DNA from: Agarophyton chilense
Taxonomy: Eukaryota; Rhodophyta; Florideophyceae; Gracilariales; Gracilariaceae
Assembly (NCBI GenBank): GCA_030374765.1
Contig: JARGXX010000007.1
Location: 620,001 to 684,000, forward strand
Length of the DNA: 64,000 nucleotides
Direction of reading: 5' to 3'
Made by a program: the position numbers and the translations under genes. Below are positions 11,157 through 54,598 of the stretch, one piece after another (within the stretch, counting starts at the first letter, position 1; each line of letters opens with the position of its first letter). Under the pieces are notes generated by a model that was not told where the DNA came from, made no database searches, and saw only the letters and a program-made list of their open reading frames with translations.

Positions 11157-12737
11157 ATGATAAGAACGGATCCCTGCAAGCGCCGCCGCGATGGCCACCG
11201 TGAATTGCTCTTCGATCGATCGCTTCAACGGGTTCGCTGGGTCTCAGAGACAACCTTGGCTCGACCTGAAGTCCCAATAGGACTCGCCAAAGTAGCCACA
11301 TGGCTACGAGATGTCGCAGACATCGAAGAGTGCTTCCGCTCATACACATTCAGAGAGATGGCTAGCCATCCTTCATCGGACCTGACCGTGTGGGGTCGCC
11401 GTCACTTCTTGCGGCTGCTAATCGAACGACGAGCGCGTCTTGCCGCGTTCCGCCGCTTAATTTCCGAGGACTTCATCGGCCGGGTAGACATCGAGTTCTA
11501 CCGACGTCCGGCGGATGAGCCGTACGTAGCGAGGACGCTACGCGAAAGCTTCCTGAACAGAATTGAAAGTTGGGCGGACGACCGCCCTCTGGTTCACAAG
11601 CTTTGCTTGCCTTTCCCGTACCTCTGCGAGGATGCTGAGGGGATTCCCTGGCTGACCACCTTCGAGGAAGTCCACAACGGCATGGGTGCCGAGGAGATTG
11701 AGCGCATCCTACGGAATCCGAAAATACTCCGGGTGCTGCCTCCGACGGTCATCCGTGACAACGGAGCCAATTGGGTCCTCGACCCCTGTAGGCGCGATGC
11801 GTCAGGCGACTTTGTCGCAAGGGTACTACCTCCGATGGACGTTTGGCTCGACCAAATCATGACGTACACGCCACATTCTTGGCGACAATTCGAGCGCATG
11901 CGCCGCCATAAGTACCAGGTTCTGGTAGCCTACCACCAAGTCGAGGTCGACTGCTTCCAGAAAGATGTCATCCGCGACATATCATGGCCTTTGCCATCGT
12001 GGTGGGAGGAAGTTGAAGTCCCCTACGGGTTCTTCAACGAAATTCCGCCGGTAGTCGTCTACCGTGGCTCATACTTCACCACGTATCCTGTATACCAAAC
12101 AGTGCTCCGCACTGAATGGGCCTGCTCGGTGGCACGCCATCTCATCTATGAGGCCCGCGCGGGTCGCTTATGGTGGATCCCTCCAACGGTACGCAAGGAC
12201 ATAAGAGATCTTAATCTCACTGGCGTCGAGCCCGATCTGGCTGATGACGAGCGACGCAACGCCGAAGCGAAGAGTCTGGAGACTCTACTAGAATTTATCG
12301 ACAAGACCTGGTGGTCTTCTCTTCCAAAAGACGGGGTGGTTCCTGACTTCTCTGCGACGCCACGCGTCCGAATGTGTGGCGCAATGCGCCCTGCCCACAA
12401 CGATGGAGCAACTCCAGTGCATCGCGGCTGTGATTGGGTTGTCTTCAACCCAGTCCTTTGCACTTTGGACATTCCAGAACAATACCTATTCATCCATGAC
12501 CAAGGAGGCAACCTCGTTGTGGAGAATCCGCGGGCGGACTTCATCGCTCCTCTCTCTGTAGGCCGGGTATCTACCTCGTCGAACTCGACGAAATCGGTAC
12601 GCCTTGCAGAATGGCGTCGCCAACAACTAGCGAAGCTAGCCTCCGAACCGAAGGATGTCGACATGGTCGACCAACCGTTGGTTAAACGGCCAAAACTTGG
12701 ATTGGTGCCCGCACCGCCAAATGAGCTTGCAAAATAG
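11157..12737 (+). CDS. Antisense protein of Gypsy-1, left copy
   Basis: A 526-codon frame from ATG, on the strand opposite gag-pol, in the gap between pol and the 3' LTR. The protein is basic and Trp/Arg-rich, with no signal peptide or membrane segment, so it does not look like an envelope. Ordered motifs shared with Gypsy-2 and Gypsy-3 are PPVVVYRGSY (297-306), a VL-x2-EWA run (316-322), GRLWWIPPTVRKDIRDL (336-352), a Leu-rich acidic helix (about 370-386) and DWVVFNP (426-432). A basic KRPKL near 510 could be a nuclear signal. It stops at TAG (12735-12737), but the same frame stays open for 69 more codons with a Leu/Ala helix (LLDALKAYGVTSLAQLQARM) that resembles the C-terminal motif of the relatives, so the TAG may be premature or read through. 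Function unknown. Confidence 0.8.
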   Translation: MIRTDPCKRRRDGHRELLFDRSLQRVRWVSETTLARPEVPIGLAKVATWLRDVADIEECFRSYTFREMASHPSSDLTVWGRRHFLRLLIERRARLAAFRRLISEDFIGRVDIEFYRRPADEPYVARTLRESFLNRIESWADDRPLVHKLCLPFPYLCEDAEGIPWLTTFEEVHNGMGAEEIERILRNPKILRVLPPTVIRDNGANWVLDPCRRDASGDFVARVLPPMDVWLDQIMTYTPHSWRQFERMRRHKYQVLVAYHQVEVDCFQKDVIRDISWPLPSWWEEVEVPYGFFNEIPPVVVYRGSYFTTYPVYQTVLRTEWACSVARHLIYEARAGRLWWIPPTVRKDIRDLNLTGVEPDLADDERRNAEAKSLETLLEFIDKTWWSSLPKDGVVPDFSATPRVRMCGAMRPAHNDGATPVHRGCDWVVFNPVLCTLDIPEQYLFIHDQGGNLVVENPRADFIAPLSVGRVSTSSNSTKSVRLAEWRRQQLAKLASEPKDVDMVDQPLVKRPKLGLVPAPPNELAK

Positions 12738-13151
12738 AACTCCGCTGCAGCTCTACTGGATGCCCTCAAGGCCTACGGGGTGACGAGCCTTGCTCAACTC
12801 CAGGCCAGGATGGCCAACAACCCTTCGTCAACGCCGGGACCTGCTGCAGTAGCCGCACCAACCACTTCGACTACGGGGCTATCCCTGATATCAGCAGCAC
12901 TGCCCTGCCTGCAGGGCCGTCGACGGCCCCTGGGGACGAACTCCTAGATAGTGAGGAGGAATTATCTCAAGTGTAGCTGTCCAAACCTTCTTTTCATAAA
13001 ACAAATGCGTTCCCTTGAACACGTGCTTGCCTCCTTTGCTCTATCATTCCAGTAGGTTAGCCATCTAGCGAATGTGTTGGGATTGGTACGGGCTCTGCTC
13101 CAGCCGCAATAGCGGGGAGCCCGCACAGGTCCAACCGTTTCAGTGTTGTTT
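12738..13151 (+). other. Tail region between antisense gene and pol
   Basis: The first 207 bases continue the antisense frame past its TAG to a stop at 12945-12947. A second frame from about 12880 ends with an acidic tail (DELLDSEEELSQV), so one frameshift plus the TAG may separate the 526-residue protein from its original C-terminus. The rest is a non-coding convergent gap before the pol stop. The same holds at 22483-22896. Confidence 0.5.
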
Positions 13152-16100
13152 TTACACTTGCGAGTTTGCCTCAGCGGGTTCCACTAGGTCATGAGTGGAG
13201 CCATGGTTAGCTCGCAGAAGTATCTCATCCCGGTCGGGGACGCTGATCTTCCGTCGTTGGCAGTAGCGAGCCACAAGGTTCCACGGCAGGCTATCAGCGG
13301 TGTGGAAGGTGTCTTCCTCTGCTGTATATCCGAGCCACCGAACTTTGTACTCGCGGTTCTCCGCCGCTCCCTGGGTATGACCCACTATCTTGTCTATGAC
13401 GCTTTCGTCATCTCCCGTCACCGCGGGGGGCTTAGACGCCCCAATGACCACGTGGTCCAAGTTATGACGCTCCTCGAGTCCTTCGTTCTCAATAAGAACC
13501 GTGTGGTTTTCCTCGTCACCGCTGATGACCTTGTAAGGTCCAACGAGCTTTCGTCTCAATTTACTGGAGATCTTCTCACCTGGAACCTCTGGCTCCCTAG
13601 GGTCTAAGTGCCTCCGCAGGTACACATACGTACCGGGTTCCGGCATTCGCTTCTCAACGACGCGAGCATCGTACCGCTGCTTGTAGCGTTGCTGCGCTTT
13701 AGTTAAGGCACCGGTCGCGCGCGACAGCAGTTGACGCAGCTGTGTCAAAAACTGCATCTTAATCTCGCGAGGAGCCTTCCCCTTTAGGGTTCCGTGTCTC
13801 TGTAGAGCCAGCGGCTCCGGGGCGGTAACGAGTACCAACTCGAACGGGGAATGGCCGGTGCTAGAATGGACTTGTGTATTGTACCCAAAGGTCAGCGCAT
13901 CGCTGTAAAGGTCCCAGTTGTGCTGATGCTCAGCAACATAATGCCTCAAGGCAGACAACATGGTTCGGTTGAACCTCTCGACTTGACCGTTGGTCTGCGG
14001 ATGGTACGTAGACGTGAAGAGGTTCTTGATGCCAAGGATTTGGCAAGCGCTCTGAAAGAACTTCGAGGCGAAGTTAGATCCATTGTCCGACAGGAAAGTG
14101 ACGGGTGGTCCGTACACAAACACCCAATGGGTGCAGAACGCCCTTGCAATTGCGAACGCATCGGTGTTCGAAAAAGGGATGGTCTTCGTCAACTTTGTGA
14201 AGCGGTCACAGATCACCAGCAAGTAACGATTACCTCTACTCGTAGTCTGAAGTGGCCCCAGGATGTCGATCGCGACACTTTCCAGCGGTGCGGTCGCCGG
14301 GAACAGCTTCAATCGGGAGCTTTTTCTCACAAGAGAAATCCTCTCCTTTACACACGAGTCACACTCGTTGACCAAACGGTACACATCGGCGGCCATGCTT
14401 GGCCAGTTATAGCGTCGACGCATCGTGGCGTACATCCTTCGTCCTCCCGGGTGTCCTGCGACACGAGGGTAATGATGCATATGCATCACGCGCTCCCTTA
14501 GCGATTTTGGTGTGAGCACCTGCTCCCTTTGATCTATTCTAGCTTTGCAGACTAATAGTCCATCGTGGTCCGTGTACACACGGCATTTGGGGTCATGGAG
14601 AGATCGTTCTCTCATGTCCTCACAGAATGAGTCCGTGGCTTGCTCGGCGAGCAATTCTTCTAGCGAAACCGCCGTCAGCTCATGTTCTTCAACGTCGAGG
14701 GCGGCATCCCAAGGATGCGAGGCATTGCAGAACGTGATGCTCGGGCCTGTAACCTCCGGCTCACACACAAAACAGGGTATGTCCTCTGAAGGTCTCATAG
14801 CGGTCTCACCATCTGTGGGTATGCGCGACAACGCATCGGCCGCTTGGTTTTCCGAGCCCTTCTTGTAAATGACTTCGTAATCATACTCTGCGAGGCGTAA
14901 CCTCCATCTAGTTAGGCGGCTATTCGCGTCGGAGTCCGACAATCCGAGAAGCCATCTCAAGGACTGGTGGTCGCTGATCACTGTGAAGTGCGTGCGCTCT
15001 AAGTAAGGCCGTAATATGGTCAGCGCCCACACAACTGCGAGACATTCTCGCTCCGTAGTGGAGTATCTCCTCTCAGTGGCGGACAAGGTCCGGCTCCAAT
15101 ACCCAACTGGATGACGGATTTCGTTATGAACTTGCGTCAAGACGCAACGAATCTGGCCAGCACTGGCATCGGTCTCCACCGTAAACGGGCGGTCTGCCCT
15201 TGGTAGCTTTAACACTGGCGCGTGCGTCAGTGCTTGCTTAAGCATTTCGAACGCTTCTAAGTGCTCAGCTGTGAGCTGCGGCAATCGAGGTGAAACCTCT
15301 TTCTTCGTAAGCTCCGTCAGCGGTGCAGCAACTTTCGCGAAATTTCGCACAAAACGTCGGTAGACGTTGCACATTCCGAGAAAGGATCGAACTTCAGTCT
15401 GCGTCGCAGGTGGTCGCACCTTCTGGAGAGCCTCAAGGTTCTTCGTGGCAACTTCCAACAGGCCCGGTTTGATTACGTGGCCAAGGTAATCTACTGACCT
15501 CCGAAAGAAGTGACACTTCTTCAACTTCAGGGTTAACCCTGCGTTTCTGAGAACAGTGAGTATCTCGTCCACATGTCGTATGTGCTCGTCCGCATTTTTG
15601 GAGAAGATGATGACATCATCAATATACACCAGGCAACATTGCCATTTGAATCCTGCTAGCAGGATATCCACGATTCTCTGGAACGTTGTTGGGGCGTTGC
15701 AAAGCCCAAAGGGCATACTAGTGAACCTATAGGTCCCTGCGTGACACGTGAACGTGGTTTTGTCCTGATCTCCAGGTGCGACGGACAGTTGCCAATACCC
15801 GCTATTGCAATCTAGCGTGGTAAAGAACTGGGCCTCGCCCAAGCTGTCAAGACATTCGTCTATGCGGGGTAGGGGATAGGTATCCTTCACGGTAAAGGCG
15901 TTGAGACGCCTATAATCTACGCAGAAGCGTAGGCTTCCGTCGGGTTTCGGAACAAAGACAACTGGGCTTGCCCATTCTGATCTGGCCGGTTCGATGACAC
16001 CTGCATCAAGCATACGCTTAACTTCGGCGAACTCGTGTTCTCTAATCTTCGGTCCAGCTCGATAAGGCTGCGAGTGAACAGGGGTTGCCCCTGACATCAA

Positions 16101-17039
16101 CTTGATCCAATGAGGAGGTCCTCGAATCTCTCCAAGCTTACCGCTCCACATGTCTTCATGCTTACCAAGCATCTCTTTAACGGCACGCTGCATCTTTGGC
16201 GAGATCTCCGAGAGATCTATCGAGTCCAAGAGGCTTGTTGGAGGCTCGGTCGTCCGCGACTCTCTAGTGTCACATGCCGTGTGTGGCCTGAGGTTTCCGG
16301 GTTCCGGTTCCTCGGGTTGTTGGTCGTGCAGGATTGCGTAGATGTCTGACGGGCGCTGCGGAACAGCACGACCAAGGACTTGTCCTTTACAAAGCGTCAC
16401 TTCGTGACGAGCGAAGTTGGGGACAATAACTCTGAACGGTCTGTTGCTGCGAACGTTCGCGACGCCATTCGCCAGATGAACGCGATATTTGTCGAAGAGC
16501 TTCTCTTCTGCCTGGAGGAAGAAACTTCCTCCATCGGCGCACCTCGCCAAGACGATGGTTTCAGAGCTAGGAGAAAGGGCTATCTTCCGTGCGACGTGAA
16601 TACGTCTGCGATGGTAGAAGGGGTCCTTCTTTAGCTTCTTTCCCTCACCCTTCGGTGGAGTGCGACGCCAATCAGATGCGGGTCGTCGGTATATCGGAAC
16701 AGATGAGTAGTTACTCATATATAGGGTCCCCCTCTTAGGGTGGATAGCGTCAACATGCTTATCGATGAAATCACATCCTAGGATCACGTCTGTACTCAGA
16801 CGTTCGGCGACCAGGAATGGCACGCGTGCCAGATAATCCCCGATGCGGATGGTTAGCACGGTGGTGCCGCGTATTTTGAGGGCATGCCCTCCTGCGTCGT
16901 TAAGTCCGAGGGACTTCTGAGCGGGTGCCAATGGGGTTATCCTCAACCCCAGAACTGCATCCTGGTGGATGAGGTTGGGAGCGGCCCCTGTATCCAATAC
17001 GTATAAAACCTCCATGGCATTGTCTTTGGTAAAGCCCAC
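13152..17039 (-). CDS. pol: Gypsy-1 Pol, left copy: protease-RT-RNase H-integrase-chromodomain
   Basis: A 1295-codon intact frame. Protease: DTG at 16-18 and VILGCDF at 85-91. Reverse transcriptase about 345-520 with D410 (TTLDCNSGYW) and YIDD at 472-475. RNase H: D624 (ETDAS), E665, D690 and D735 (ADALSR). Integrase: zinc finger H856/H863/C893/C896 and core D925, D985, E1021 (35 residues between the last two). A GPY/F-like module is near 1165 and a chromodomain at about 1213-1262 (EYKVRWLGYTAEEDTF), which in chromoviruses steers integration to modified chromatin. All catalytic residues are kept. The first listed codon is GTG; the frame is open from 17216, so Pol is probably made as a Gag-Pol fusion. 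Confidence 0.95.
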   Translation of the reverse strand: MGFTKDNAMEVLYVLDTGAAPNLIHQDAVLGLRITPLAPAQKSLGLNDAGGHALKIRGTTVLTIRIGDYLARVPFLVAERLSTDVILGCDFIDKHVDAIHPKRGTLYMSNYSSVPIYRRPASDWRRTPPKGEGKKLKKDPFYHRRRIHVARKIALSPSSETIVLARCADGGSFFLQAEEKLFDKYRVHLANGVANVRSNRPFRVIVPNFARHEVTLCKGQVLGRAVPQRPSDIYAILHDQQPEEPEPGNLRPHTACDTRESRTTEPPTSLLDSIDLSEISPKMQRAVKEMLGKHEDMWSGKLGEIRGPPHWIKLMSGATPVHSQPYRAGPKIREHEFAEVKRMLDAGVIEPARSEWASPVVFVPKPDGSLRFCVDYRRLNAFTVKDTYPLPRIDECLDSLGEAQFFTTLDCNSGYWQLSVAPGDQDKTTFTCHAGTYRFTSMPFGLCNAPTTFQRIVDILLAGFKWQCCLVYIDDVIIFSKNADEHIRHVDEILTVLRNAGLTLKLKKCHFFRRSVDYLGHVIKPGLLEVATKNLEALQKVRPPATQTEVRSFLGMCNVYRRFVRNFAKVAAPLTELTKKEVSPRLPQLTAEHLEAFEMLKQALTHAPVLKLPRADRPFTVETDASAGQIRCVLTQVHNEIRHPVGYWSRTLSATERRYSTTERECLAVVWALTILRPYLERTHFTVISDHQSLRWLLGLSDSDANSRLTRWRLRLAEYDYEVIYKKGSENQAADALSRIPTDGETAMRPSEDIPCFVCEPEVTGPSITFCNASHPWDAALDVEEHELTAVSLEELLAEQATDSFCEDMRERSLHDPKCRVYTDHDGLLVCKARIDQREQVLTPKSLRERVMHMHHYPRVAGHPGGRRMYATMRRRYNWPSMAADVYRLVNECDSCVKERISLVRKSSRLKLFPATAPLESVAIDILGPLQTTSRGNRYLLVICDRFTKLTKTIPFSNTDAFAIARAFCTHWVFVYGPPVTFLSDNGSNFASKFFQSACQILGIKNLFTSTYHPQTNGQVERFNRTMLSALRHYVAEHQHNWDLYSDALTFGYNTQVHSSTGHSPFELVLVTAPEPLALQRHGTLKGKAPREIKMQFLTQLRQLLSRATGALTKAQQRYKQRYDARVVEKRMPEPGTYVYLRRHLDPREPEVPGEKISSKLRRKLVGPYKVISGDEENHTVLIENEGLEERHNLDHVVIGASKPPAVTGDDESVIDKIVGHTQGAAENREYKVRWLGYTAEEDTFHTADSLPWNLVARYCQRRKISVPDRDEILLRANHGSTHDLVEPAEANSQV

Positions 17040-17254: not shown

Positions 17255-19514
17255 GGGTTGCACGGACACCGCGCTAGGTCGTAGGGCCTGGTATCCTCTT
17301 CGTGGAGGCGTGAGTCCTGCCACGAAGTAGACCATCGCCGGCATCCTTGCCGCTATCTCTGGAGAGGCCTCCATTATACGCTGTCGAGCCTGCGCTCGCA
17401 TGGCCGGAGTGATCCACTCGCAATCAGCGACCACGTGGTCGGGATTGGCGCATAAGTAACAAGCTCCGTAAGCTTCGCGTCGCGGCGCATGCTGGCTCCG
17501 CTGGAGCCTTCGATCAACCCATCCAACGCGCTTGGGCTGCGCCCACTCCTCCATACGGGTGTTATAGTTTGACACTACCAGAAGCGCGGGGTCACTCTGT
17601 CCCAACGGGTCAGATTGCAGAAGGGTTTCCGCCTCTGTTGTGCTACAGCTGTAGCTTGGGTCCGTAGGCGGACCCTCTACATCGGTGCCGATATGCATTA
17701 TGGCGTCGTCGCCAAGATTACGGCCTGTCAGAGCCGTAACGGTGGAAAGGGTCGTACCCTCCAGTGACATCACCGGTGCCTTAGCCTGATACGGCTTAAC
17801 ATTCAACGGATGCCTGAGCGGTCGCGTCAGCCGTGACGTATGTCCATGAGACATAGCCAGTTCAACCACAGCGTCCAAGGTCGTAAATCGATCGCGGTGG
17901 AGCTGGCGGTCTCGTGTCACACACGAAGCGACGCTGGGCAAGAGCCCTTCGGATAAAGGAAGCAATTTGCTCTTCCTGTGAATAAACCCCACCAAGTTTC
18001 GAGAGCTTCAGGCGGACACGCTGTCCGAAAGACTGCTCAGTCTCACCAGCCCTCTGGCGTAGTAATCGGAGATCACGTACTAGATCCTGGATATACTCAT
18101 CCTTCGCGTAGCTGCGTAGCAGCCATTGGATAGCCTCTGGCCATGACTTGATTCCCGTGGAGAAATCGTCAATCGCGTCCACGTGCAAAGCACTGTCGTA
18201 CGCTATACGGGCATTACCCGTCAGGAAGTACGGGAGTACTAACTTTGCCATACCTTCGGAGATTCCGTTGTTATTGGCCTCGCGTTTGAACGCCGCTAAA
18301 AAGGTCAGGACTGACATAGGATCTGCTCCGTCGAACCGACGGTTCGCCATGGTGGTATTGAACCGCTTGACCATAGAAGCGACACGTCGCTTAACTTTCG
18401 AGCTCTCGCTTGTTGCTCGATTATCTAACCGATATGTCTTGTACGACAAGACTTTCTTGAAGCGGCTATTAGCAGGGTTAATCTCTGCGAGATTATGCTT
18501 CCGCAAGTCCGCACCGGACTCTGAGCTCGAGGATGATATATCATCCGTGGACGAAGATTCCGAACCGGATTTGCGCGTCACCTTAGAGCGTTTGCGCTCC
18601 TGCTTGGCTCTGGAAGCCCTGGGCTTGTGTGAGGGAACCTCACCTTCTGATGGAGAAGTACCATGCTTCATAAGGAAGGCCACCTGGCCTTGCAGGGCAG
18701 CTCGTTGGAACTCTAGGTCCTCGACCTTCTTGTCCAGGTTGACAATTCGAGTCTCCAGGCCCTGGAGCTCCTGTCCATTAGAAGTGACAACTCCTCGTTG
18801 TGTGGCTTGCAACACCTGGCGGGGTATCTCGACCGCAAGAAAAGATTGAAGGCGTTGTTGCAGCGCAGCTTGCTCTTTACCTACAACCTTTACAGTTAGT
18901 TCGGCGAGTCGAGCTTCGAGGGATTCTCTCCAACTCCGCTCAGCCTCGTTAACCTGCTGGGTCACGAGCCTGGGCACGAGGTCTACGACCTCGGCAACGA
19001 CGAGCTGTCGGACTTGCACCGGTACTACGTCCATTGGAAGTCTTGGGGATGGAGTTTCATCCACGTTGATGGGAATTCCTCCCGAGGGTGGGGCATGAAG
19101 ACCTTTTTCAGAGGGAAACACCTTACTGGGACGAACGGTATCAGTCGTCGTAGACTGTTTCACTGGGGGGTCCAGCCTCGGTAAGGGAAGGGGAGTGAAC
19201 TCCACCCTAGGCAAGGTAGCAAGAGCTACCGATGGTGTGTTCACTGGCACACTAGGACCTGCAGGTCCGGAGGAAGAAGGTTCTTCCACGACTGGGGAGG
19301 GTGAGGAGGCTGCATCTCTCACAGTCGCTGACTGCACCTCCCCGGGCGTCGGGACATGGGCTAACTGGGCAACTCGGAAAAGTTTCGGGGGTTTGCTTCC
19401 GCTGAGTGCTGAGGCGTTGTTCTGTGTAGAACTAGCCTCTCGACCACTGACCGAAACGGACTGATTGTCGTTCGAAGTCGAACGCCTGAAGGAAGCACCT
19501 GATCGAGTGCTCAT
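17252..19514 (-). pseudogene. gag: Gypsy-1 Gag, left copy, with a frameshift before the zinc knuckle
   Basis: Frame one (19514-17862, 550 codons) starts at ATG MSTRSGASFR and has a Pro/Ser-rich N-terminus, a coiled coil (about 195-285), a Ser/Asp-rich stretch (318-335) and the capsid domain (about 350-525; RFDGADPMSVLTFLAAFK, LPYFLTGNARIAYD). Frame two (17995-17252) carries the CCHC nucleocapsid knuckle CYLCANPDHVVADC. Comparison with Gypsy-3 Gag shows the text switching from frame one to frame two near IRRAL (about 17940), a +1 shift at GCT-CTT-G-CCC. It could be a simple indel or a Ty1-like CTT slip; an indel is likelier, as Gypsy-3 shifts elsewhere and in the other direction. Confidence 0.85.
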
Positions 19515-20901: not shown

Positions 20902-22482
20902 ATGATAAGAACGGATCCCTGCAAGCGCCGCCGCGATGGCCACCGTGAATTGCTCTTCGATCGATCGCTTCAACGGGTTCGCTGGGTCTCAGAGACAACC
21001 TTGGCTCGACCTGAAGTCCCAATAGGACTCGCCAAAGTAGCCACATGGCTACGAGATGTCGCAGACATCGAAGAGTGCTTCCGCTCATACACATTCAGAG
21101 AGATGGCTAGCCATCCTTCATCGGACCTGACCGTGTGGGGTCGCCGTCACTTCTTGCGGCTGCTAATCGAACGACGAGCGCGTCTTGCCGCGTTCCGCCG
21201 CTTAATTTCCGAGGACTTCATCGGCCGGGTAGACATCGAGTTCTACCGACGTCCGGCGGATGAGCCGTACGTAGCGAGGACGCTACGCGAAAGCTTCCTG
21301 AACAGAATTGAAAGTTGGGCGGACGACCGCCCTCTGGTTCACAAGCTTTGCTTGCCTTTCCCGTACCTCTGCGAGGATGCTGAGGGGATTCCCTGGCTGA
21401 CCACCTTCGAGGAAGTCCACAACGGCATGGGTGCCGAGGAGATTGAGCGCATCCTACGGAATCCGAAAATACTCCGGGTGCTGCCTCCGACGGTCATCCG
21501 TGACAACGGAGCCAATTGGGTCCTCGACCCCTGTAGGCGCGATGCGTCAGGCGACTTTGTCGCAAGGGTACTACCTCCGATGGACGTTTGGCTCGACCAA
21601 ATCATGACGTACACGCCACATTTTTGGCGACAATTCGAGCGCATGCGCCGCCATAAGTACCAGGTTCTGGTAGCCTACCACCAAGTCGAGGTCGACTGCT
21701 TCCAGAAAGATGTCATCCGCGACATATCATGGCCTTTGCCATCGTGGTGGGAGGAAGTTGAAGTCCCCTACGGGTTCTTCAACGAAATTCCGCCGGTAGT
21801 CGTCTACCGTGGCTCATACTTCACCACGTATCCTGTATACCAAACAGTGCTCCGCACTGAATGGGCCTGCTCGATGGCACGCCATCTCATCTATGAGGCC
21901 CGCGCGGGTCGCTTATGGTGGATCCCTCCAACGGTACGCAAGGACATAAGAGATCTTAATCTCACTGGCGTCGAGCCCGATCTGGCTGATGACGAGCGAC
22001 GCAACGCCGAAGCGAAGAGTCTGGAGACTCTACTAGAATTTATCGACAAGACCTGGTGGTCTTCTCTTCCAAAAGACGGGGTGGTTCCTGACTTCTCTGC
22101 GACGCCACGCGTCCGAATGTGTGGCGCAATGCGCCCTGCCCACAACGATGGAGCAACTCCAGTGCATCGCGGCTGTGATTGGGTTGTCTTCAACCCAGTC
22201 CTTTGCACTTTGGACATTCCAGAACAATACCTATTCATCCATGACCAAGGAGGCAACCTCGTTGTGGAGAATCCGCGGGCGGACTTCATCGCTCCTCTCT
22301 CTGTAGGCCGGGTATCTACCTCGTCGAACTCGACGAAATCGGTACGCCTTGCAGAATGGCGTCGCCAACAACTAGCGAAGCTAGCCTCCGAACCGAAGGA
22401 TGTCGACATGGTCGACCAACCGTTGGTTAAACGGCCAAAACTTGGATTGGTGCCCGCACCGCCAAATGAGCTTGCAAAATAG
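20902..22482 (+). CDS. Antisense protein of Gypsy-1, right copy
   Basis: 526 codons, identical to the left copy except Phe for Ser at residue 241 and Met for Val at 325. The same TAG ends it, with the same open extension to 22690-22692, so stop and extension predate the duplication. The nearest upstream sequence is the chimeric LTR, whose inner half is of the LTR 1 type, so both copies sit beside nearly identical potential promoters. Confidence 0.8.
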   Translation: MIRTDPCKRRRDGHRELLFDRSLQRVRWVSETTLARPEVPIGLAKVATWLRDVADIEECFRSYTFREMASHPSSDLTVWGRRHFLRLLIERRARLAAFRRLISEDFIGRVDIEFYRRPADEPYVARTLRESFLNRIESWADDRPLVHKLCLPFPYLCEDAEGIPWLTTFEEVHNGMGAEEIERILRNPKILRVLPPTVIRDNGANWVLDPCRRDASGDFVARVLPPMDVWLDQIMTYTPHFWRQFERMRRHKYQVLVAYHQVEVDCFQKDVIRDISWPLPSWWEEVEVPYGFFNEIPPVVVYRGSYFTTYPVYQTVLRTEWACSMARHLIYEARAGRLWWIPPTVRKDIRDLNLTGVEPDLADDERRNAEAKSLETLLEFIDKTWWSSLPKDGVVPDFSATPRVRMCGAMRPAHNDGATPVHRGCDWVVFNPVLCTLDIPEQYLFIHDQGGNLVVENPRADFIAPLSVGRVSTSSNSTKSVRLAEWRRQQLAKLASEPKDVDMVDQPLVKRPKLGLVPAPPNELAK

Positions 22483-22896: not shown

Positions 22897-25800
22897 TTAC
22901 ACTTGCGAGTTTGCCTCAGCGGGTTCCACTAGGTCATGAGTGGAGCCATGGTTAGCTCGCAGAAGTATCTCATCCCGGTCGGGGACGCTGATCTTCCGTC
23001 GTTGGCAGTAGCGAGCCACAAGGTTCCACGGCAGGCTATCAGCGGTGTGGAAGGTGTCTTCCTCTGCTGTATATCCGAGCCACCGAACTTTGTACTCGCG
23101 GTTCTCCGCCGCTCCCTGGGTATGACCCACTATCTTGTCTATGACGCTTTCGTCATCTCCCGTCACCGCGGGGGGCTTAGACGCCCCAATGACCACGTGG
23201 TCCAAGTTATGACGCTCCTCGAGTCCTTCGTTCTCAATAAGAACCGTGTGGTTTTCCTCGTCACCGCTGATGACCTTGTAAGGTCCAACGAGCTTTCGTC
23301 TCAATTTACTGGAGATCTTCTCACCTGGAACCTCTGGCTCCCTAGGGTCTAAGTGCCTCCGCAGGTACACATACGTACCGGGTTCCGGCATTCGCTTCTC
23401 AACGACGCGAGCATCGTACCGCTGCTTGTAGCGTTGCTGCGCTTTAGTTAAGGCACCGGTCGCGCGCGACAGCAGTTGACGCAGCTGTGTCAAAAACTGC
23501 ATCTTAATCTCGCGAGGAGCCTTCCCCTTTAGGGTTCCGTGTCTCTGTAGAGCCAGCGGCTCCGGGGCGGTAACGAGTACCAACTCGAACGGGGAATGGC
23601 CGGTGCTAGAATGGACTTGTGTATTGTACCCAAAGGTCAGCGCATCGCTGTAAAGGTCCCAGTTGTGCTGATGCTCAGCAACATAATGCCTCAAGGCAGA
23701 CAACATGGTTCGGTTGAACCTCTCGACTTGACCGTTGGTCTGCGGATGGTACGTAGACGTGAAGAGGTTCTTGATGCCAAGGATTTGGCAAGCGCTCTGA
23801 AAGAACTTCGAGGCGAAGTTAGATCCATTGTCCGACAGGAAAGTGACGGGTGGTCCGTACACAAACACCCAATGGGTGCAGAACGCCCTTGCAATTGCGA
23901 ACGCATCGGTGTTCGAAAAAGGGATGGTCTTCGTCAACTTTGTGAAGCGGTCACAGATCACCAGCAAGTAACGATTACCTCTACTCGTAGTCTGAAGTGG
24001 CCCCAGGATGTCGATCGCGACACTTTCCAGCGGTGCGGTCGCCGGGAACAGCTTCAATCGGGAGCTTTTTCTCACAAGAGAAATCCTCTCCTTTACACAC
24101 GAGTCACACTCGTTGACCAAACGGTACACATCGGCGGCCATGCTTGGCCAGTTATAGCGTCGACGCATCGTGGCGTACATCCTTCGTCCTCCCGGGTGTC
24201 CTGCGACACGGGGGTAATGATGCATATGCATCACGCGCTCCCTTAGCGATTTTGGTGTGAGCACCTGCTCCCTTTGATCTATTCTAGCTTTGCAGACTAA
24301 TAGTCCATCGTGGTCCGTGTACACACGGCATTTGGGGTCATGGAGAGATCGTTCTCTCATGTCCTCACAGAATGAGTCCGTGGCTTGCTCGGCGAGCAAT
24401 TCCTCTAGCGAAACCGCCGTCAGCTCATGTTCTTCAACGTCGAGGGCGGCATCCCAAGGATGCGAGGCATTGCAGAACGTGATGCTCGGGCCTGTAACCT
24501 CCGGCTCACACACAAAACAGGGTATGTCCTCTGAAGGTCTCATAGCGGTCTCACCATCTGTGGGTATGCGCGACAACGCATCGGCCGCTTGGTTTTCCGA
24601 GCCCTTCTTGTAAATGACTTCGTAATCATACTCTGCGAGGCGTAACCTCCATCTAGTTAGGCGGCTATTCGCGTCGGAGTCCGACAATCCGAGAAGCCAT
24701 CTCAAGGACTGGTGGTCGCTGATCACTGTGAAGTGCGTGCGCTCTAAGTAAGGCCGTAATATGGTCAGCGCCCACACAACTGCGAGACATTCTCGCTCCG
24801 TAGTGGAGTATCTCCTCTCAGTGGCGGACAAGGTCCGGCTCCAATACCCAACTGGATGACGGATTTCGTTATGAACTTGCGTCAAGACGCAACGAATCTG
24901 GCCAGCACTGGCATCGGTCTCCACCGTAAACGGGCGGTCTGCCCTTGGTAGCTTTAACACTGGCGCGTGCGTCAGTGCTTGCTTAAGCATTTCGAACGCT
25001 TCTAAGTGCTCAGCTGTGAGCTGCGGCAATCGAGGTGAAACCTCTTTCTTCGTAAGCTCCGTCAGCGGTGCAGCAACTTTCGCGAAATTTCGCACAAAAC
25101 GTCGGTAGACGTTGCACATTCCGAGAAAGGATCGAACTTCAGTCTGCGTCGCAGGTGGTCGCACCTTCTGGAGAGCCTCAAGGTTCTTCGTGGCAACTTC
25201 CAACAGGCCCGGTTTGATTACGTGGCCAAGGTAATCTACTGACCTCCGAAACAAGTGACACTTCTTCAACTTCAGGGTTAACCCTGCGTTTCTGAGAACA
25301 GTGAGTATCTCGTCCACATGTCGTATGTGCTCGTCCGCATTTTTGGAGAAGATGATGACATCATCAATATACACCAGGCAACATTGCCATTTGAATCCTG
25401 CTAGCAGGATATCCACGATTCTCTGGAACGTTGTTGGGGCGTTGCAAAGCCCAAAGGGCATACTAGTGAACCTATAGGTCCCTGCGTGACACGTGAACGT
25501 GGTTTTGTCCTGATCTCCAGGTGCGACGGACAGTTGCCAATACCCGCTATTGCAATCTAGCGTGGTAAAGAACTGGGCCTCGCCCAAGCTGTCAAGACAT
25601 TCGTCTATGCGGGGTAGGGGATAGGTATCCTTCACGGTAAAGGCGTTGAGACGCCTATAATCTACGCAGAAGCGTAGGCTTCCGTCGGGTTTCGGAACAA
25701 AGACAACTGGGCTTGCCCATTCTGATCTGGCCGGTTCGATGACACCTGCATCAAGCATACGCTTAACTTCGGCGAACTCGTGTTCTCTAATCTTCGGTCC

Positions 25801-30542: not shown

Positions 30543-30782
30543 ACACTATCGATAAGTTCATCCTCTTCGAGCGTTGAAACAAGTTTTAGCATGCCAGGAA
30601 GAATCAAAACACCGATCCGCAATCGTATCCATCCAGAAAAGGTTTGTGAGATAGTGGGTAAGTTTTTGACGAGGAAGACAGTGAAGGTGAGGACGGAAAG
30701 AACAGAGAGAACGTGGGCGACGAAGACTTGCAACTAACTGAAATTTCTGAAATGATTTCTGTCTTGGATCGGCAGAGGTCAA
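30543..30782 (+). pseudogene. Unknown coding remnant, piece 3 (right of Gypsy-1)
   Basis: The first five bases are the target duplication. The plus frame that ended VCAEDT at 9873 continues here as IDKFILFER and meets a TGA. The same frame later reads a strongly acidic stretch (FDEEDSEGEDGKNRENVGDE...) up to a TGA near 30790, after several stops. This looks like the decayed 3' part of a gene. Family unknown. Confidence 0.35.
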
Positions 30783-38754: not shown

Positions 38755-40874
38755 ATGCCGAACTCGCCTTATAAGCCCGTCGGATACGCCGTTCTCCCCT
38801 CGGACTATGACGCCTCCGTCGGCTTCCCCATTCATTTACCGGCGGACCAGCCCGTGGGCAGCGGCACCATGGCTTCAAACAACCAAATGGGGAGCTCTTC
38901 GAGATATCAAGTGTCTTACGAACGTCGCGGGGACCGCTATGACCATACCATCGAACCGATTCCGCGGGTAGTGTCTCATGACATTCTTCGGTCCTTTCTG
39001 GAAGAGTACCAAATCTTCTGTCATATGTATCTCGACGGCCGAAGGATTGCCAAGATAACCGATTTCGGAAGGGGCAGCAAGAACGCCCGCAGCGTTTCGT
39101 GGTATAACCGATGGTTGAATTGTCCTATGGATCCGCATTAGGCGACGCGATGGCGCACCTTCATCCAAGCGGACATGCCATACGTCCACTGCGACGAAGA
39201 AGCCGAATACCAGTTCAGGGTGAACAAAATTCTTCGGACCTATAAACGGAATTCATCTCGCCTCATGTGCGATTTCCTACCGCGGGTCACAACCCCTTGG
39301 CGTTTATATCCTTCCGGCCTCCTATCACAGCCTGTTTTGGATGTCCTATAGGGTCCATTGGAACGAGATGCAGGAGCCCGATGGGAGTTTGCGTCAATCC
39401 CTGGGGTTCTTCTTTCGTTGGCACCCGGTGGAGTTTCACGCCATGAGCGCAGAGAAACTTCTTCCTTTATATCTTTTGCTTCCCCACAAAGATGAGAACC
39501 GATGGGCCACGTATTGCCATGTCTCGCCGCTCCTTTCGGCTCCCACGCCGTCTGTGGTGGCGTATTACTCGTCCTAACTCATGGGCGATGACAGTGACCG
39601 AAGGTCGTGGCTGTCCTGGCAGGTACTCTTCGTTCAGTTCGGAGTGATGCCCCTTATGGCCTTCCTGGATATCGCGAAATATGGAATCCGTGGTATTGTC
39701 CGTTAAGAGGATTGGAGGGTGTGGTACGACGAGGTCTTCGAAGTCGTCTAATCCCGCTCCCGAACATCATAATCCGTTTTCTTAGGAACCTGGGCATCCG
39801 GAATATCGTCCGTGGGACCCAGTTCGACGCCAAGGAGACCGAGGCTCTTTTGGATCATGTCCTGCAGGTGAAGTTGGGCAAGAGTTTTGGGTTCCTTCGG
39901 TATGACCACGATAACGACTCATTCACGCCGATTCGGATACATCCGCAGGTTCGGGACGACGCTCGTGCCTATCCGGCCAAGCCTTTGAGGAATCAACAAT
40001 CGGGTATCCCGAGGCGGCAATTTCACGACTATCATCCCGAGTCCATTGGCTTCGATCCCCTGTGCTTCGAGCCTGACGTGGAAACCACGCCGTTGGTTCC
40101 TGCTAGGATTCCCGATGGAGAACCCTTCAGTGTGTATCCCTTCGTCCTACCCGTAGAGGGCGTTAGTCCCCCGGTCGAATCCGCTGTGGTATTGCCGACC
40201 GCTTCCTCTCCTCCAGGTCCTCCGGGCGCTGCTCCTCAGGATGAGCTCTCGTATGAGCCACCCGTTGCCTAGGCGAACATCTCTCCTGGCGAGATTACTG
40301 TCGAGGCCGAAAGTCCTGTAGGTGATGCGCTGGCTCAAACGTCCAATGGGGGCGTCGAAATCGCTCCGTCCTCTCCGTTGCAACACTTTCCTGCTTCGGT
40401 CTCGGCTGCAGCCGCGGATCTTCGTCATGTCTGTCGTACCATTGGTATCACTGCCTCGATGGACATTGCGAAAGTCCAAGGGAAGCTTGCTCCTGGGCGC
40501 ATCGCCTGGCGTGCTACGCCGCGGTTGTCCAACAAGGTCAGGATCTGAAGACCGACATGGTCGGTATCCTGCATCAGAATGCCCAAGTGATGTCCCAGAG
40601 AGTTACCTCCGACGTGGATGCCCAGTTTGGTCTTTTTGAGCGAGACCGGGAGGCTTGCAATGGTGACAATAGTTCTTCAGGTGAATATCTGCCGAAGAAG
40701 CGTGCTTGGCTCGCTAGGGTCGGTCATAGTGGTCCCGTTGGCTCCTGGGGTGACCCTAGTCCCACTTTCGCTCCTGCAAGTTTCAATAAGGACGACGAAG
40801 TTACTTCTGTGACGCTCCAGGGAGTCCCGTTGGTGTTAGGTGCGCTTCTGCGAATCCTGAGGTCATGGTGTTAG
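38755..40874 (+). pseudogene. Antisense protein of Gypsy-2, decayed
   Basis: Begins at ATG 38755 (MPNSPYKPVGYAVL). Homologous text is spread over several frames: stop at 39139, then ATRWRTFIQADMPYVHCDEE, a frame change near 39340 (MSYRVHWNEMQEPDG), PTPSVVAYYSS at about 39555, then RSRLIPLPNIIIRFLRNL and EALLDHVLQV in the frame from 39607, and DPLCFEP near 40060. These match, in order, the motifs of the Gypsy-1 antisense protein. After a TAG (40270-40272) the frame stays open 91 codons and includes LRHVCRTIGITASMDIAK, like the C-terminal helix of the relatives; a last frame runs to 40874. Its end meets the pol end (40871) tail to tail. Function unknown. Confidence 0.7.
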
Positions 40875-41590
40875 TTAGTCAAATAAATTAATGCTTGTGC
40901 TTTCTCAAGGTCGTTCTTGTATCTCAAACGTGCGTGCCCCGGGACGGCGTCGAACCTTGAGAGCGTCTCGGGGTTTTCTGAGGTGTCGCCTTGGGACAGA
41001 CTTTGTTCTCTGATGCGGGAGCTACGGCGAACCGTCGTGTCGGGAGGCGTTTCGAGAGGCGTTTTGGGATGCTTCGGGCCAATGGTTACCTCCATCTGAA
41101 GTCTGCCCTCCGTGCTCCCAATTTTGCGCCAATAGCTGGCGATAAAATTAGCCGGAATGGTTTGAGACTCTTCCCAATTGTCTTCCTCAGGTTTGTAGAC
41201 GAACCAACGGACGCGATAGCGCATAGTTCCATCTTCTCCCCGACCGGAGGAGATAATGCGTTCAGTCACATATTCCGGTTGGTATTCATGCTCCGGCAGG
41301 AGAGTGTGGTCCAGAGGGGCGAGTCCATCGGAGTCGGTTGGAAGAGATGGGTTATCGTCATTGGCATTAACCATTGGGGGCATGGGGCTAGTCGAGTCCG
41401 CGGGAACTCCCTTAGGGTGTGTGGAGACTTGAGCTTCGACCTGAGGCCGTAGCGATTCCGTTGGGACAGGGGACTCGGACTTTGGTGACTCGGGGAAGCT
41501 GGGAGCTCGGGTCCCCCGGCTAGTGGATACGGTGCCCTGTAGGCCGTCAATTAGTAACGTAATGATGTGTTGATTGGCCTCATAGACTTT
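40871..41590 (-). pseudogene. Gypsy-2 chromodomain and Pol C-terminus
   Basis: The frame 41383-40871 contains a chromodomain (YVTERIISSGRGEDG, MRYRVRWFVYKPEEDNWEES, ANFIASYW). In chromoviruses this C-terminal module binds histone marks and directs integration. The segment joining it to integrase (41550-41266) is in another frame and reads as a Pro/Ser-rich linker. Confidence 0.8.
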
Positions 41591-47572: not shown

Positions 47573-47574
47573 AA

Positions 47575-51344: not shown

Positions 51345-52090
51345 AATGTTTGCTCCAATTATTAGTGGTTCTCCCATTATAGCGGCGTCTCGCCGCAGTC
51401 GGGCACTCTCTGTTGTCCCGCAACAAGCCACCGTGGAAACCAACACCGGAAGTGATTCCAACCTCACCGACCTACGAAGGAGTACTAAACGTTCCGAGTC
51501 CTTGAACAAAAATACCCATAAGACACACAACGTTCTTCGTATTTCAGATAGAGTCAAAATTTCCGCGTGGAGGCAAATAAAACAAACGAAAAAGGACATA
51601 AACGCGTCATTTCAAAAGCAGTTAAGCACTTCCATGCAATTTTCAGAAGCATTTCGAAAGCAAATCTCCAGAAAGCAAGCCGCATATGGAAAGCTCGACA
51701 CCAATATCTGAACGAAGATGGCTTTCCACAATACAGAGGAATTCTTACGTCGATTACACGCTACACTTCCTATGGAATGAAACCCACATATCTCAAAGCA
51801 CGCAGTGGAAGGGGCAGAAAAATTAGGCCGTGGGTTGAAGCTTTGCAATCCGATTGGGTGCACGAATTTGACCGATTGCGCAAGCTTGAGAGTTAAGTTT
51901 AACTGGAAGATTCTCCAAAGTCTCGCCCTTTCCATAGTTGAAAAGTCCACAGCAATTTCTTATTACCGCAAAATGATGGACGATAACAAGCAGATTGTTC
52001 TGTTGCAATGCATAACGAGAAAATGGATTAAAATTTTCACAGATCGTCACCGAATTATAAGCCGTTCTAGAACAGGAAAACACCATGTCT
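51345..52090 (+). pseudogene. Pogo-like transposase, N-terminal half (interrupted by Gypsy-3)
   Basis: Text in order: ISAWRQIKQTKKDINASFQK, then a frame change near 51690 to RHQYLNEDGFPQYRG and GRKIRPWVEALQSDWVHEFD, then a second change near 51888 to VKFNWKILQSLALSIVEKS and ITRKWIKIFTDRHRIISRS, ending RTGKHHV at the Gypsy-3 insertion point. The W-I-x-x-F-x-x-R-x-x-I-x-SR-x-x-TGK pattern is the CENP-B/pogo type DNA-binding helix-turn-helix region of DDE_1 transposases. The protein would bind transposon ends and cut them; here it is broken. Confidence 0.7.
52086..52090. other. Gypsy-3 target-site duplication, left copy
   Basis: TGTCT before the left LTR, repeated exactly at 63077-63081 after CCTTCA. 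The transposase frame continues through the duplication. Confidence 0.85.
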
Positions 52091-52874
52091 TGTAGGACAA
52101 AGCTTGGGGCGGAGACACCACGAAGATGTTCGGGATCTTCCTCTCTTGAGAGACACGCCTCAGGCGGAGGAGACGCGTCTCAGCGGAGCACAGAAACAGA
52201 GCCACTCTGGAAAAGCACGACGGAGTCGGGTGTAAGACCGAGGCCAATCCGGCGGGATATACCTAGAGTGTTTAGGTGAGCACGGCACAGTCCGGGGTAT
52301 GACCAACCCTAGGCGGAGCGGTATCACGGCGATTGTTGGAAAAGAAGCGAGGAAACACTCGTATGATGGGGACGAGCGGGGTGAGTGAGGCGGCCACTCA
52401 CGAGAGCCAATAAGGAGAACAAGAGGAAAACGGAGGCGAAACCCTATAGAGGGGCGAGACTACGACAAGTGTCAGCGATTAAATATGAACCCACGGTGGT
52501 GGTAGCACTTTAGTTGACAGAGAGGTGGATGAACTAACGTGCAACGGGCGCTCACGCAGTATGCGGTGAAGACGCGCCGAAGGCGAAATGTTCAGAGCCA
52601 AGACTCGCCCCTTGGGATCTCCCTAGAGGGTGTATACTGGGGAACAGTGCTCAACCTCCTAAGTAGTGTGGCGCGCGGCCCCTGAAAGTGGGCGCGCGCC
52701 CGAAAAATAGACACTAAATAGCGATAGCATAGCTAAATAAATACTGAAAACTACTAAATAATACTAACCAAAAGGTGCAATCCGGGCCACGTGTAGCCCC
52801 CCTCGCACTTGCGCGTCGGCATCCGTGCAGTCCACGTGTTTCACCAGTGTGGACCTCCGGTCCTAACCGGCCGT
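52091..52874 (-). repeat. Gypsy-3 left (3') LTR, inner end missing
   Basis: 784 bp matching 62190-62973, starting TGTAGGACAA. Similarity stops after CCGGCCGT, about 100 bases before the LTR should end. No TTGTCCTTCA end and no polypurine tract follow, so a deletion has removed the LTR edge, the tract and probably the start of the antisense gene. Confidence 0.85.
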
Positions 52875-52894
52875 AGTCCAGCGACCACTCGACT

Positions 52895-54598
52895 GTCGAA
52901 GGCAGAGCTGCACAACCGAACGACAAACGCACCAACGCAGTAACCACTCCTCGAACTCCGAGCGCGCTGCTGCATCGGACACCAACCTCTAGCGATTACA
53001 TCCCGATACCTCGGCGACCAGTACTTCCGATAAACGGTGGTAACAATCCCCGCCGGGGTTACTTCTTCGGTTTCCCTTCGGCTCCCCTTCCGCGGGGGAG
53101 TGCCTCGTCAACCGCGCCGAGCCGATCCCGGGGTCCCGTTGAAGCTTCAAGCCACATCACTCCTGCGGAGGACACCTGGCCCAGTTACGACAAACTCGTC
53201 CGGTTAAACCCGCGTCAACATGCGGCGATTCTCCAGAGAGCTCCGTGGTTCCATCCGACAGCGGTCTTCGACGAAGAACTCGTGGCGTCGTATGTTGATG
53301 GAAATGCGCGTCTCCCGGGCGAGCTGCCGGCTTTGATCACCACTTCGTGGGACTGGCGACGCCGCGTGGCGGTTCCCAATCACTCGATTCTGCGGCGAAG
53401 GCACGAGTCGGCGGAAGAGGCGCATTGTACTTTCGTCCGCATCGGCTACTCACGGATCAACCGGGTAAGTTTTCAATACCCCATCCCCGACGAGTTCGGC
53501 TTCGACCTACGGATGTACCGGACGCAGGGTGAGATCGGCTATTGTGAGCGCCTTGCGGCGTTGGAAACTTACGCATGGCGCGGTCAACCGCGAGCGCGTG
53601 AAGAAGCGATCTGCTGGGTCCGTCCGATCATTCGTGCCGAGTTCCGTCATCTTCGTCGTGAGTCCCGATATCGGTGGTTACTGAACTTCATCCGCGAGGA
53701 ACGCCGGGGCAGATCCCGCTTTGGGTTCTTTGTCCCTTATCAGAACACAGAGATAAACCGGATTAGTCCCTTCTATCAGTTCGGGCGATACGTTCCCCGG
53801 CCTGGGTGGCGGTCCTCCGTCGAGGTGTGCGGGGGATGTTACGCGGAGTGGCCTCCAGTCGTCTCCTATCTGGGCTCGTACCTCATCGAGGATCCGCACT
53901 CCGGCTTATGGTCCGTGGTCCTAGCAGAATGGGCAGTGCGCGCCGCGGCGTACGTCTTGTGGGAAGGCTACGACCAGCATCGACTGTGGTATCTTCCTCC
54001 GCGTTTGCGTGGTTACATCCAGAAGCTGGACCTTCAACTCCTTCTTGGAGGTGTCGATAACACTGATGAAGCTCAGGAGCTCATAGACATTATTGGGCGT
54101 CTCGAATGGGCTGTCGTGCCTGTCCGGCAGAGCGGCCGTGGTCAAGAAGCCGGTGGGGCTGATCAGTCTCCGGGGCGTCGCACGCCGTTGGTGGGAGATT
54201 TCATCTTTTTTAACCCATGGGAGCAGCAAGAGATCTCCGAGGCGGAGGCGTCGGCACTCCAGATGGCTCCACGAGGCATACCATACGGGCACCCCGTGGG
54301 GTTTGTCCACTGGGATGACTTCTACTACGCCTATGGCGGTGATGAGCTCTCGGAGGAGGAGGGCGATTACCGTGGCGACGAGGTCACGGAAGACGTGGGA
54401 GATCCCGATGGTGCCGATACTACGGCGCAGCCGGCGCAGGGAGCGAATCGCGCAGGTGCGGTCGTCGATCCAGTGGCGGAGGCGTTGCCGGACGAACCGG
54501 AAGTTTTCGAGGTTCCCATACGCCCAGAGGCGGCCGTGATCTTCCAGTTCCTTCGGGGTGTCGGACTGAACGCGCGAGCGGCGACATCGGTACGATGA
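52895..54598 (+). pseudogene. Antisense protein of Gypsy-3
   Basis: Open for 567 codons after a TAG at 52892-52894, on the strand opposite gag-pol. No in-frame ATG precedes 53510, so the start has been lost or moved; an ATC at 53156 may be a mutated ATG. Numbering from 53282: PPVVSYLGSY (191-200), VVLAEWA (212-218), HRLWYLPPRLRGYIQKLDL (233-251), an acidic Leu helix (260-275) and GDFIFFNP (305-312), the same order as in Gypsy-1. The end (FQFLRGVGLNARAATSVR) resembles the C-terminal helix seen past the TAG in Gypsy-1. A long acidic tail (355-415) is specific to this copy. Function unknown. Confidence 0.72.

What the first reader, a model, noticed from the sequence alone, without database searches (positions are those of the whole stretch)
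11157..54598. A family of antisense proteins shared by three different chromoviruses
Gypsy-1 (11157-12737, 20902-22482), Gypsy-2 (38755-40874, decayed) and Gypsy-3 (52895-54598) each carry a long plus-strand frame between the end of pol and the 3' LTR, opposite to gag-pol. The proteins are too diverged to be recent copies, but share in the same order: P(P/S)VV-x-Y-x-(G/S)S, (G/H/S)RL-x3-P followed by a basic helix ending L-x-L, a Leu/acidic helix, D-x3-F(N/E)P, and a C-terminal Leu/Ala helix. Antisense ORFs at this position are known from some plant gypsy elements such as Retand/Ogre relatives, with unclear function. I do not recognise this family. Conservation across three lineages argues for a selected role, perhaps control of the sense RNA, a Gag/integrase partner or a silencing suppressor. 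The roles are speculation.
Basis: partly seen in the sequence, partly recalled or inferred. Interest (0 to 1): 0.88.

Follow-up and report, generated by a model that had tools for sequence, protein, structure and literature searches.

The report
Antisense accessory gene in seaweed retrotransposons
Several distantly related retrotransposon families in a red seaweed genome carry the same unrecognised protein-coding gene, written backwards next to one end of the element, and its sequence shows signs that the protein has been kept by selection, so these mobile elements probably benefit from a protein of unknown function.

Summary
Gypsy-1 and Gypsy-3 in the window, a decayed Gypsy-2, and a fourth family elsewhere in the genome carry a long frame opposite to gag-pol between pol and the 3' LTR. 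Gypsy-1 and Gypsy-3 proteins match directly (E 1e-14). Gypsy-2 links through better copies and a profile score that no shuffle reached. In 20 of 20 fourth-family loci examined, pol faces the antisense frame. No Pfam, NCBIfam or convincing PDB relative was found; database relatives are five Agarophyton chilense proteins and one unnamed protein. Copies of the younger families show no clear selection. Gypsy-2 copies do: the core gives pN/pS 0.29-0.41 in three pairs, integrase 0.50-0.60 in two. In three families the start codon lies about 80-140 bp internal to the 3' LTR edge. Best reading: an old, vertically inherited accessory gene, expressed from an antisense transcript starting in or near the 3' LTR, probably a nuclear regulatory protein. 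Expression and function are inferred. Antisense ORFs at this place are known in plants and a fungus; this protein family and host group appear new.

The parts
9874..11055 (-). 3' LTR of Gypsy-1 copy a (element reads on the minus strand)
   Evidence: 98.1% match over 1183 bp to 29364-30546; edge read from sequence next to a purine tract
11056..11065 (-). polypurine-tract-like run next to the 3' LTR
   Evidence: minus-strand run read by eye
11157..12737 (+). antisense ORF, Gypsy-1 copy a, 526 aa, starts about 100 bp internal to the 3' LTR edge
13152..17039 (-). Gypsy-1 pol (protease, RT, RNase H, integrase; chromodomain below the Pfam cut-off)
   Evidence: Pfam
17862..19514 (-). Gypsy-1 gag-like ORF (weak Retrotrans_gag, below cut-off)
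20902..22482 (+). antisense ORF, Gypsy-1 copy b (99.6% to copy a at protein level)
22897..26784 (-). Gypsy-1 copy b pol frame
   Evidence: 9745 bp from the copy a frame
29364..30546 (-). 5' LTR of Gypsy-1 copy b
37931..38318 (-). approximate 3' LTR of Gypsy-2
   Evidence: two blocks at 84-87% to 47577-48017
38755..40808 (+). decayed antisense gene of Gypsy-2, broken over several frames
   Evidence: tblastn with L041/L042 frames, 62-68% identity in the main blocks; ATG at 38755
40874..41590 (-). Gypsy-2 pol end with chromodomain
   Evidence: PF00385 E 1.2e-5
52082..52874 (-). 3' LTR of Gypsy-3
   Evidence: 93.8% to 62183-62973
52877..54598 (+). antisense frame of Gypsy-3, 573 codons; start-codon end missing in this copy
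54903..55280 (-). Gypsy-3 chromodomain
   Evidence: PF00385 E 2.3e-6
55561..59152 (-). Gypsy-3 integrase and RT frames
   Evidence: Pfam
62183..62973 (-). 5' LTR of Gypsy-3

Best explanation
It is an accessory protein gene that belongs to a set of red-algal chromoviruses and has probably been inherited with them since before the four families split. SHOWN: a long coding frame opposite to gag-pol between pol and the 3' LTR; homology of the frame across families; protein-level purifying selection in one family; relatives among predicted proteins of another red alga. INFERRED: it is translated from an antisense mRNA that starts in or just inside the 3' LTR (LTR acting as a two-way promoter, or a promoter beside it), so expression does not depend on the sense promoter of the 5' LTR; the protein goes to the nucleus and works in trans as a regulator or helper of the element's own cycle (transcript control, RNA or DNA binding, or pre-integration complex), as HBZ does for HTLV-1 and as has been proposed for Grande gene23 and Retand TRP28 proteins.
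For: Coding and homologous. Convergent to pol in 20 of 20 fourth-family loci fetched, 4 of 4 Gypsy-2 loci fetched and Gypsy-3 in the window; all 22 Gypsy-1 sequences aligned (231 of 231 pairs) carry pol at the same place. Selection: three Gypsy-2 pairs give pN/pS 0.49, 0.57 and 0.34 in the antisense frame (Fisher p 2e-9, 1e-4, 3e-14); four of the other five frames lie at 0.80-2.01 and the fifth, which shares third positions, at 0.59-0.63. Core 0.30, 0.29, 0.41 against 0.60 and 0.50 for integrase of the same family. Between Gypsy-3 and the fourth family pN 0.46-0.48 against pS 0.72-0.74. Vertical inheritance: integrase and antisense core rank the families broadly alike. Expression site: ATG about 100 bp (Gypsy-1), 140 bp (4 Gypsy-3 copies measured) and about 80 bp (1 fourth-family copy) internal to the LTR edge. 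Nuclear hint: basic cluster near the C-terminus in both long Gypsy-2 frames and near the N-terminus of Gypsy-1. Of six antisense proteins only L042 has a window of membrane-like hydrophobicity, one, borderline.
Against: No transcript or protein evidence. AlphaFold models failed (mean pLDDT 31 and 49), so no fold supports nucleic-acid binding. The fourth-family protein tested has no basic cluster by my criterion. No exact TATAA/TATAT was found on the plus strand at 10557-11157 or 52277-52900. In Gypsy-2 the start is about 440 bp from the LTR, so tight LTR spacing is not universal. Within-family variation in three families shows no clear selection, and a Gypsy-1 pair with 88% aa identity shows none (pN/pS 0.87, p 0.30). 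The Gypsy-3 pair (0.67, p 0.02) is no lower than its echo frame (0.64). Two further Gypsy-2 pairs with L044 over codons 280-698 and 330-748 give 0.68 (p 0.01) and 0.41.
Confidence: 0.5

Rival explanations
1. The antisense protein is a structural or assembly partner (Gag, integrase or particle component) rather than a regulator of expression; it is made from the antisense RNA but acts in the particle or pre-integration complex.
For: Long protein with a constrained core and looser ends in Gypsy-2, inherited together with pol; a separate expression route would set its dose apart from Gag-Pol.
Against: No interaction data; basic clusters fit a nuclear regulator equally well.
Confidence: 0.25
2. 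The protein counters host silencing (suppressor of RNA silencing or anti-silencing factor), which would pay for the double-stranded RNA that a convergent transcript risks making.
For: Convergent sense and antisense genes in all four families as far as examined; the families are abundant.
Against: No domain or sequence match to any suppressor; no fold search was possible; nothing tested.
Confidence: 0.12
3. The selected thing is the antisense RNA (regulatory non-coding RNA); the long frame is a by-product.
For: LTR antisense RNAs with non-coding activity exist in retroviruses and mobile elements (PMC10186651 abstract and passages; PMC7264820 parts 1 and 2).
Against: Protein-level similarity between families whose synonymous sites are near saturation, and frame-specific constraint with most other frames near neutral.
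Confidence: 0.04
4. A captured host gene or a separate mobile element carried along, without a role for the carrier.
For: Such captures are known in LTR elements (PMC7264820 part 1).
Against: Same place and orientation in four families, with a broadly similar ranking of identities to integrase; no named host protein or domain family matched (the context of the Agarophyton proteins was not seen); constraint in Gypsy-2.
Confidence: 0.06
5. The true gene is on the other strand (sense frames such as 12146-12769 or 53921-54616) and the antisense frame is its shadow.
For: The minus frame sharing third positions (which holds 12146-12769) also shows lowered pN/pS in Gypsy-2 pairs (0.59-0.63) and in the Gypsy-3 pair is as low as the plus frame (0.64 against 0.67).
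Against: That minus frame has 8 stops in Gypsy-1 and 27 in Gypsy-3 over the stretch, the plus frame only its terminal stop. The frame of 53921-54616 shows no constraint in the Gypsy-3 pair (1.38). Plus-frame constraint is stronger in two of three Gypsy-2 pairs and about equal in the third. Database relatives are proteins of the plus frame.
Confidence: 0.02

Closest known systems
Antisense additional ORFs between pol and 3' LTR (aORF-3R) of plant LTR retrotransposons: Grande gene23, RIRE2, PvRetro13 (PMC7264820, parts 1 and 2 of 3 read)
   Same: Position, orientation, presence in many copies, unknown function; gene23 has its own promoter and a nuclear product (as that review reports).
   Different: No shared Pfam domain; host is a red alga; carried by chromodomain elements and shared over four families. 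Sequences of those plant proteins were not compared directly.
Retand elements with TRP28 (PF04195) antisense proteins (PMC11963269, abstract and passages read)
   Same: Conserved antisense protein family downstream of pol across many elements; proposed DNA-binding regulator.
   Different: No PF04195 match here at E up to 1; Retand is a non-chromovirus lineage of flowering plants.
Boty/BcGypsy1 with antisense gene brtn in Botrytis (named in PMC7264820 and in PMC8365987 passages; original paper not read)
   Same: Antisense gene in a gypsy element of a non-plant.
HBZ of HTLV-1 and related deltaretroviral antisense proteins (PMC10186651, abstract and passages read)
   Same: Works-like analogy only: protein coded antisense and made from a 3' LTR promoter that lacks a TATA box.
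   Different: No bZIP or other Pfam domain here; no homology by any test made; expression untested.

Membership tests
Antisense accessory ORFs between pol and 3' LTR (aORF-3R), a positional class | ORF between pol and 3' LTR, opposite to gag-pol | tested here: met
Antisense accessory ORFs between pol and 3' LTR (aORF-3R), a positional class | Present in most copies of a family | tested here: inconclusive
   Many copies found by searching with the ORF itself; elements lacking it were not counted
Antisense accessory ORFs between pol and 3' LTR (aORF-3R), a positional class | Antisense transcription | not testable with these tools
   No RNA data
Retand TRP28 proteins | PF04195 domain | tested here: not met
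   No match up to E 1 in 14 of 14 alignment members scanned, though the filters drop most matches above E 0.1
Chromoviruses (Ty3/gypsy with chromodomain), for the carrier elements | Chromodomain after integrase | tested here: met
   Gypsy-2 and Gypsy-3 above the Pfam cut-off; Gypsy-1 below it (20.0 against 25.1 bits); fourth family: the Gypsy-1 chromodomain part matches by tblastn in 14 of 20 loci, not tested by Pfam. No RT tree was made.
HBZ-like antisense regulators | bZIP domain | tested here: not met
   No bZIP in Pfam scans
HBZ-like antisense regulators | Antisense promoter in the 3' LTR | not testable with these tools
   Only the nearness of the start codon to the LTR was seen
Env-like ORFs | Sense orientation and membrane-spanning segments | tested here: not met
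   Antisense; one borderline hydrophobic window in one of six antisense proteins

The most novel reading that the evidence does not exclude
Red-algal chromoviruses carry an undescribed, ancient family of nuclear regulatory proteins made from a two-way 3' LTR promoter: another independent invention of an HBZ-like antisense control gene by LTR elements, beside retroviruses, flowering plants and fungi.
Probability: 0.35. Interest if true: 0.75.

Novelty: new variant of a known kind. Interest (0 to 1): 0.6.

Why it matters
Antisense genes of LTR elements are reported repeatedly without a known role, and it is often unclear whether the protein matters at all. Here the protein-coding claim can be tested and passes: the frame is homologous across families that differ at half or more of their antisense core residues, and in the few Gypsy-2 copies compared its core is at least as constrained as integrase. 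The family extends this class to red algae and to chromodomain elements, gives many copies for comparison, and defines a core of about 200 residues for biochemistry. If the 3' LTR drives it, the question whether LTR elements repeatedly evolve antisense self-control becomes directly testable.

Tried and rejected
Within-family dN/dS: mostly uninformative, because most variants are private to one copy and look neutral. Among variants shared by four or more copies, Gypsy-1 pol leans to synonymous (7 N to 11 S), the Gypsy-1 antisense frame only weakly (15 N to 9 S, the same as its echo frame), Gypsy-3 antisense gives 3 N to 6 S, and the fourth family has too few (5 N to 3 S; pol 1 to 1). A Gypsy-1 pair (88% aa) gives no signal.

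Structure: two AlphaFold jobs, mean pLDDT 31.2 and 48.7; no fold search was run on them because the models are too poor. PDB profile search: four chains, all ABC-transporter periplasmic proteins, at E 0.012-0.021 on an N-terminal stretch; taken as chance. Gypsy-2 profile: no PDB match. Best weak Pfam match: DUF6494, E 0.017, in one of eight Gypsy-2 members.

Direct Gypsy-2 comparisons failed with the short decayed piece and with the two-sequence Gypsy-1/P0001 profile (E 0.45; E 0.26). They became better than shuffles only with wider profiles; hhalign's own probability is still only 28-54%.

Relatives elsewhere: none confirmed in viral contigs or prokaryote genomes. Elicitin and Zn_clus searches were meant to place the host but had no positive control, so they show nothing; phycobilisome genes did. 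The sigma-70 promoter scan does not apply to this host.
Full report
What is there. The three gypsy families of the finding read on the minus strand of the window, so their 3' LTRs lie on the left. Gypsy-1 is a tandem array LTR-element-LTR-element-LTR with a 9745-bp unit. Its plus-strand frames at 11157-12737 and 20902-22482 encode 526 aa. First-order random sequence of the same composition and length gave a longest frame of 145 aa at the median and 338 aa at most in 2000 trials; for Gypsy-3 (573 codons open) the figures were 169 and 444. The pol frame ends about 415 bp beyond the antisense stop, so the two genes converge and do not overlap.

Whose genome. The window lies in an 80-Mb assembly of 135 contigs. 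Of 15 phycobilisome-domain matches, 14 lie on contig C39, beside frames that I read by eye as ATP synthase subunits, so C39 looks like a plastid genome. Five predicted proteins of the red alga Agarophyton chilense match the Gypsy-2 antisense profile, four at 72-79% and one at 58% identity over 34-70% of the query. I infer a gracilarioid red alga; the species was not established.

Copies. With the Gypsy-1 protein, 82 matches were scored: 27 full-length (9 without a stop inside), 15 fragments, and 40 to a further family at 34-38% identity. With the Gypsy-3 protein, 76 matches were scored, 7 without a stop. With the Gypsy-2 piece, 152 matches were counted. These are lower bounds by the tool's own statement. 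I fetched 20 of the 40 loci of the further family ('G4', about 640 codons); in 20 of 20 pol lies on the opposite strand and faces the antisense frame.

Homology. Gypsy-1 against Gypsy-3: 27% over 193 columns, E 1e-14. G4 against Gypsy-3: about 41% over 424 residues in most of the 20 loci. Profile against profile, the Gypsy-3/G4 set and the Gypsy-1/P0001 set give E 3.7e-18. P0001, the single hit of the first two database searches (which score only about 8000 candidates each), is a 723-aa ENA protein without name, 32% identical over 82% of Gypsy-1. Gypsy-2 is the distant member. Two of four fetched copies have open frames of 698 and 748 codons. A profile of three copies with the Agarophyton proteins scores 39.8 against the six-protein profile A1 and 44.1 against the Gypsy-3/G4 profile A3. 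For A1, 0 of 100 column shuffles (60 of them repeated) and 0 of 60 block shuffles reach it; for A3, 0 of 60 and 0 of 60; reversed profiles score 16.1 and 24.6. Against the two-sequence Gypsy-1/P0001 profile it is not significant.

Same history as the element. Over 146 shared integrase columns the identities are G3-G4 0.72, G1-G4 0.68, G1-G3 0.62, G2 to the others 0.49-0.54. Over 170 antisense-core columns they are 0.45, 0.34, 0.29 and 0.17-0.24. The ranking agrees except among the three G2 values, which are close together. This fits one acquisition before the split and no later swapping; four families are few for a formal test and no tree was built.

Selection. Within Gypsy-1 (22 sequences: both window copies and 20 of the 25 other full-length matches), G4 (20) and Gypsy-3 (the window copy and 8 others), most variants occur in one copy and look neutral; the same holds for the pol stretches tested in Gypsy-1 and G4. 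This is what post-insertion decay gives. Gypsy-2 copies are more diverged. For the pairs L041/L042, L041/L043 and L042/L043 the antisense frame gives pN/pS 0.49, 0.57 and 0.34 (Fisher p 2e-9, 1e-4, 3e-14). Four of the five other frames lie between 0.80 and 2.01; the fifth shares third codon positions and echoes the signal at 0.63, 0.59 and 0.61. By parts, the core gives 0.30, 0.41 and 0.29, the N-terminal part 0.67-0.95, the C-terminal part 0.50-1.05. Two pairs with L044 over core end and C-terminal part give 0.68 and 0.41. Integrase of the same family gives 0.60 (L043/L041) and 0.50 (L043/L044). The Gypsy-3 pair is weaker (0.67, p 0.02, echo frame 0.64) and a Gypsy-1 pair shows nothing (0.87, p 0.30). 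Between Gypsy-3 and G4 pN is 0.46-0.48 with pS 0.72-0.74; pol between the same families is more conserved (pN 0.22-0.31). So the protein is constrained but changes faster than pol overall.

Layout. The Gypsy-1 3' LTR ends at about 11055 beside a purine tract; the antisense ATG is about 100 bp further in. In four Gypsy-3 copies (L046, L047, L048, L050) the ATG is 140-141 bp from the LTR edge; of the other four fetched, L045 showed no LTR match and L049, L051 and L052 had no frame of 500 codons to measure (L045, L049, L050, L052 were read forward, the others reversed). The window's own Gypsy-3 copy lacks that end. In the one G4 copy measured (L037) the frame opens about 15 bp and its first ATG about 80 bp from the LTR edge. 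In Gypsy-2 the distance is about 440 bp. A gene this close to the LTR most simply starts its RNA in or beside the LTR; no exact TATA-like site was seen in the two stretches checked, and no RNA data were available.

What the protein might do. No Pfam match at E 0.1 for the three window frames scanned; only isolated weak matches up to E 1 among 14 members; none in NCBIfam for six members. One borderline hydrophobic window in one of six proteins. Basic clusters lie near the C-terminus of both long Gypsy-2 frames, near the N-terminus of Gypsy-1 and in the Gypsy-3 core; the G4 protein tested has none. Structure prediction failed. A nuclear regulator or helper is therefore the favoured reading by anatomy and analogy only.

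Literature. [quoted passage not shown] In Retand, 97% of clusters carry antisense TRP28 proteins (PMC11963269, abstract and passages). Deltaretroviral HBZ is the functional model (PMC10186651, abstract and passages). Bdelloid LTR elements carry other extra ORFs (PMC5408684, passages). A paper on oomycete chromodomain-bearing gypsy elements does not use the word antisense (PMC5348765), and a Gracilaria genome paper uses neither 'LTR' nor 'antisense' in its main text (PMC12502185). The rows listed by ten searches (titles and abstract starts) name no such gene in red algae; the library holds open-licence papers only and the listings were cut, so this does not prove absence.

Noticed in passing
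9874-30546; also G000 C5:10546-51059 and C78:14311-25622: Gypsy-1 occurs as head-to-tail arrays: two units sharing LTRs here, and by the spacing of antisense frames (9734 bp) five units on C5 and two on C78.
   Followed up: no
6103-8634, with repeats at 3140-3439 and 9029-9328: A copia-type pol (RVT_2, 843 aa) on the plus strand, flanked by an 85% direct repeat that may belong to its LTRs.
   Followed up: no
435-734: A minus-strand stretch 34% identical to Gypsy-2 integrase, perhaps a further gypsy element at the left edge of the window.
   Followed up: no
L044:2-1591: In one Gypsy-2 copy a frame that I read by eye as RT/RNase H runs into the antisense core in the same plus-strand frame, which suggests a rearrangement.
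   Followed up: no
52874-52877: The window's Gypsy-3 copy lacks the stretch between LTR edge and antisense start that other copies have.
   Followed up: partly
L053-L056: Four tubulin-domain matches were found in the genome, each in a long open frame without visible introns.
   Followed up: no
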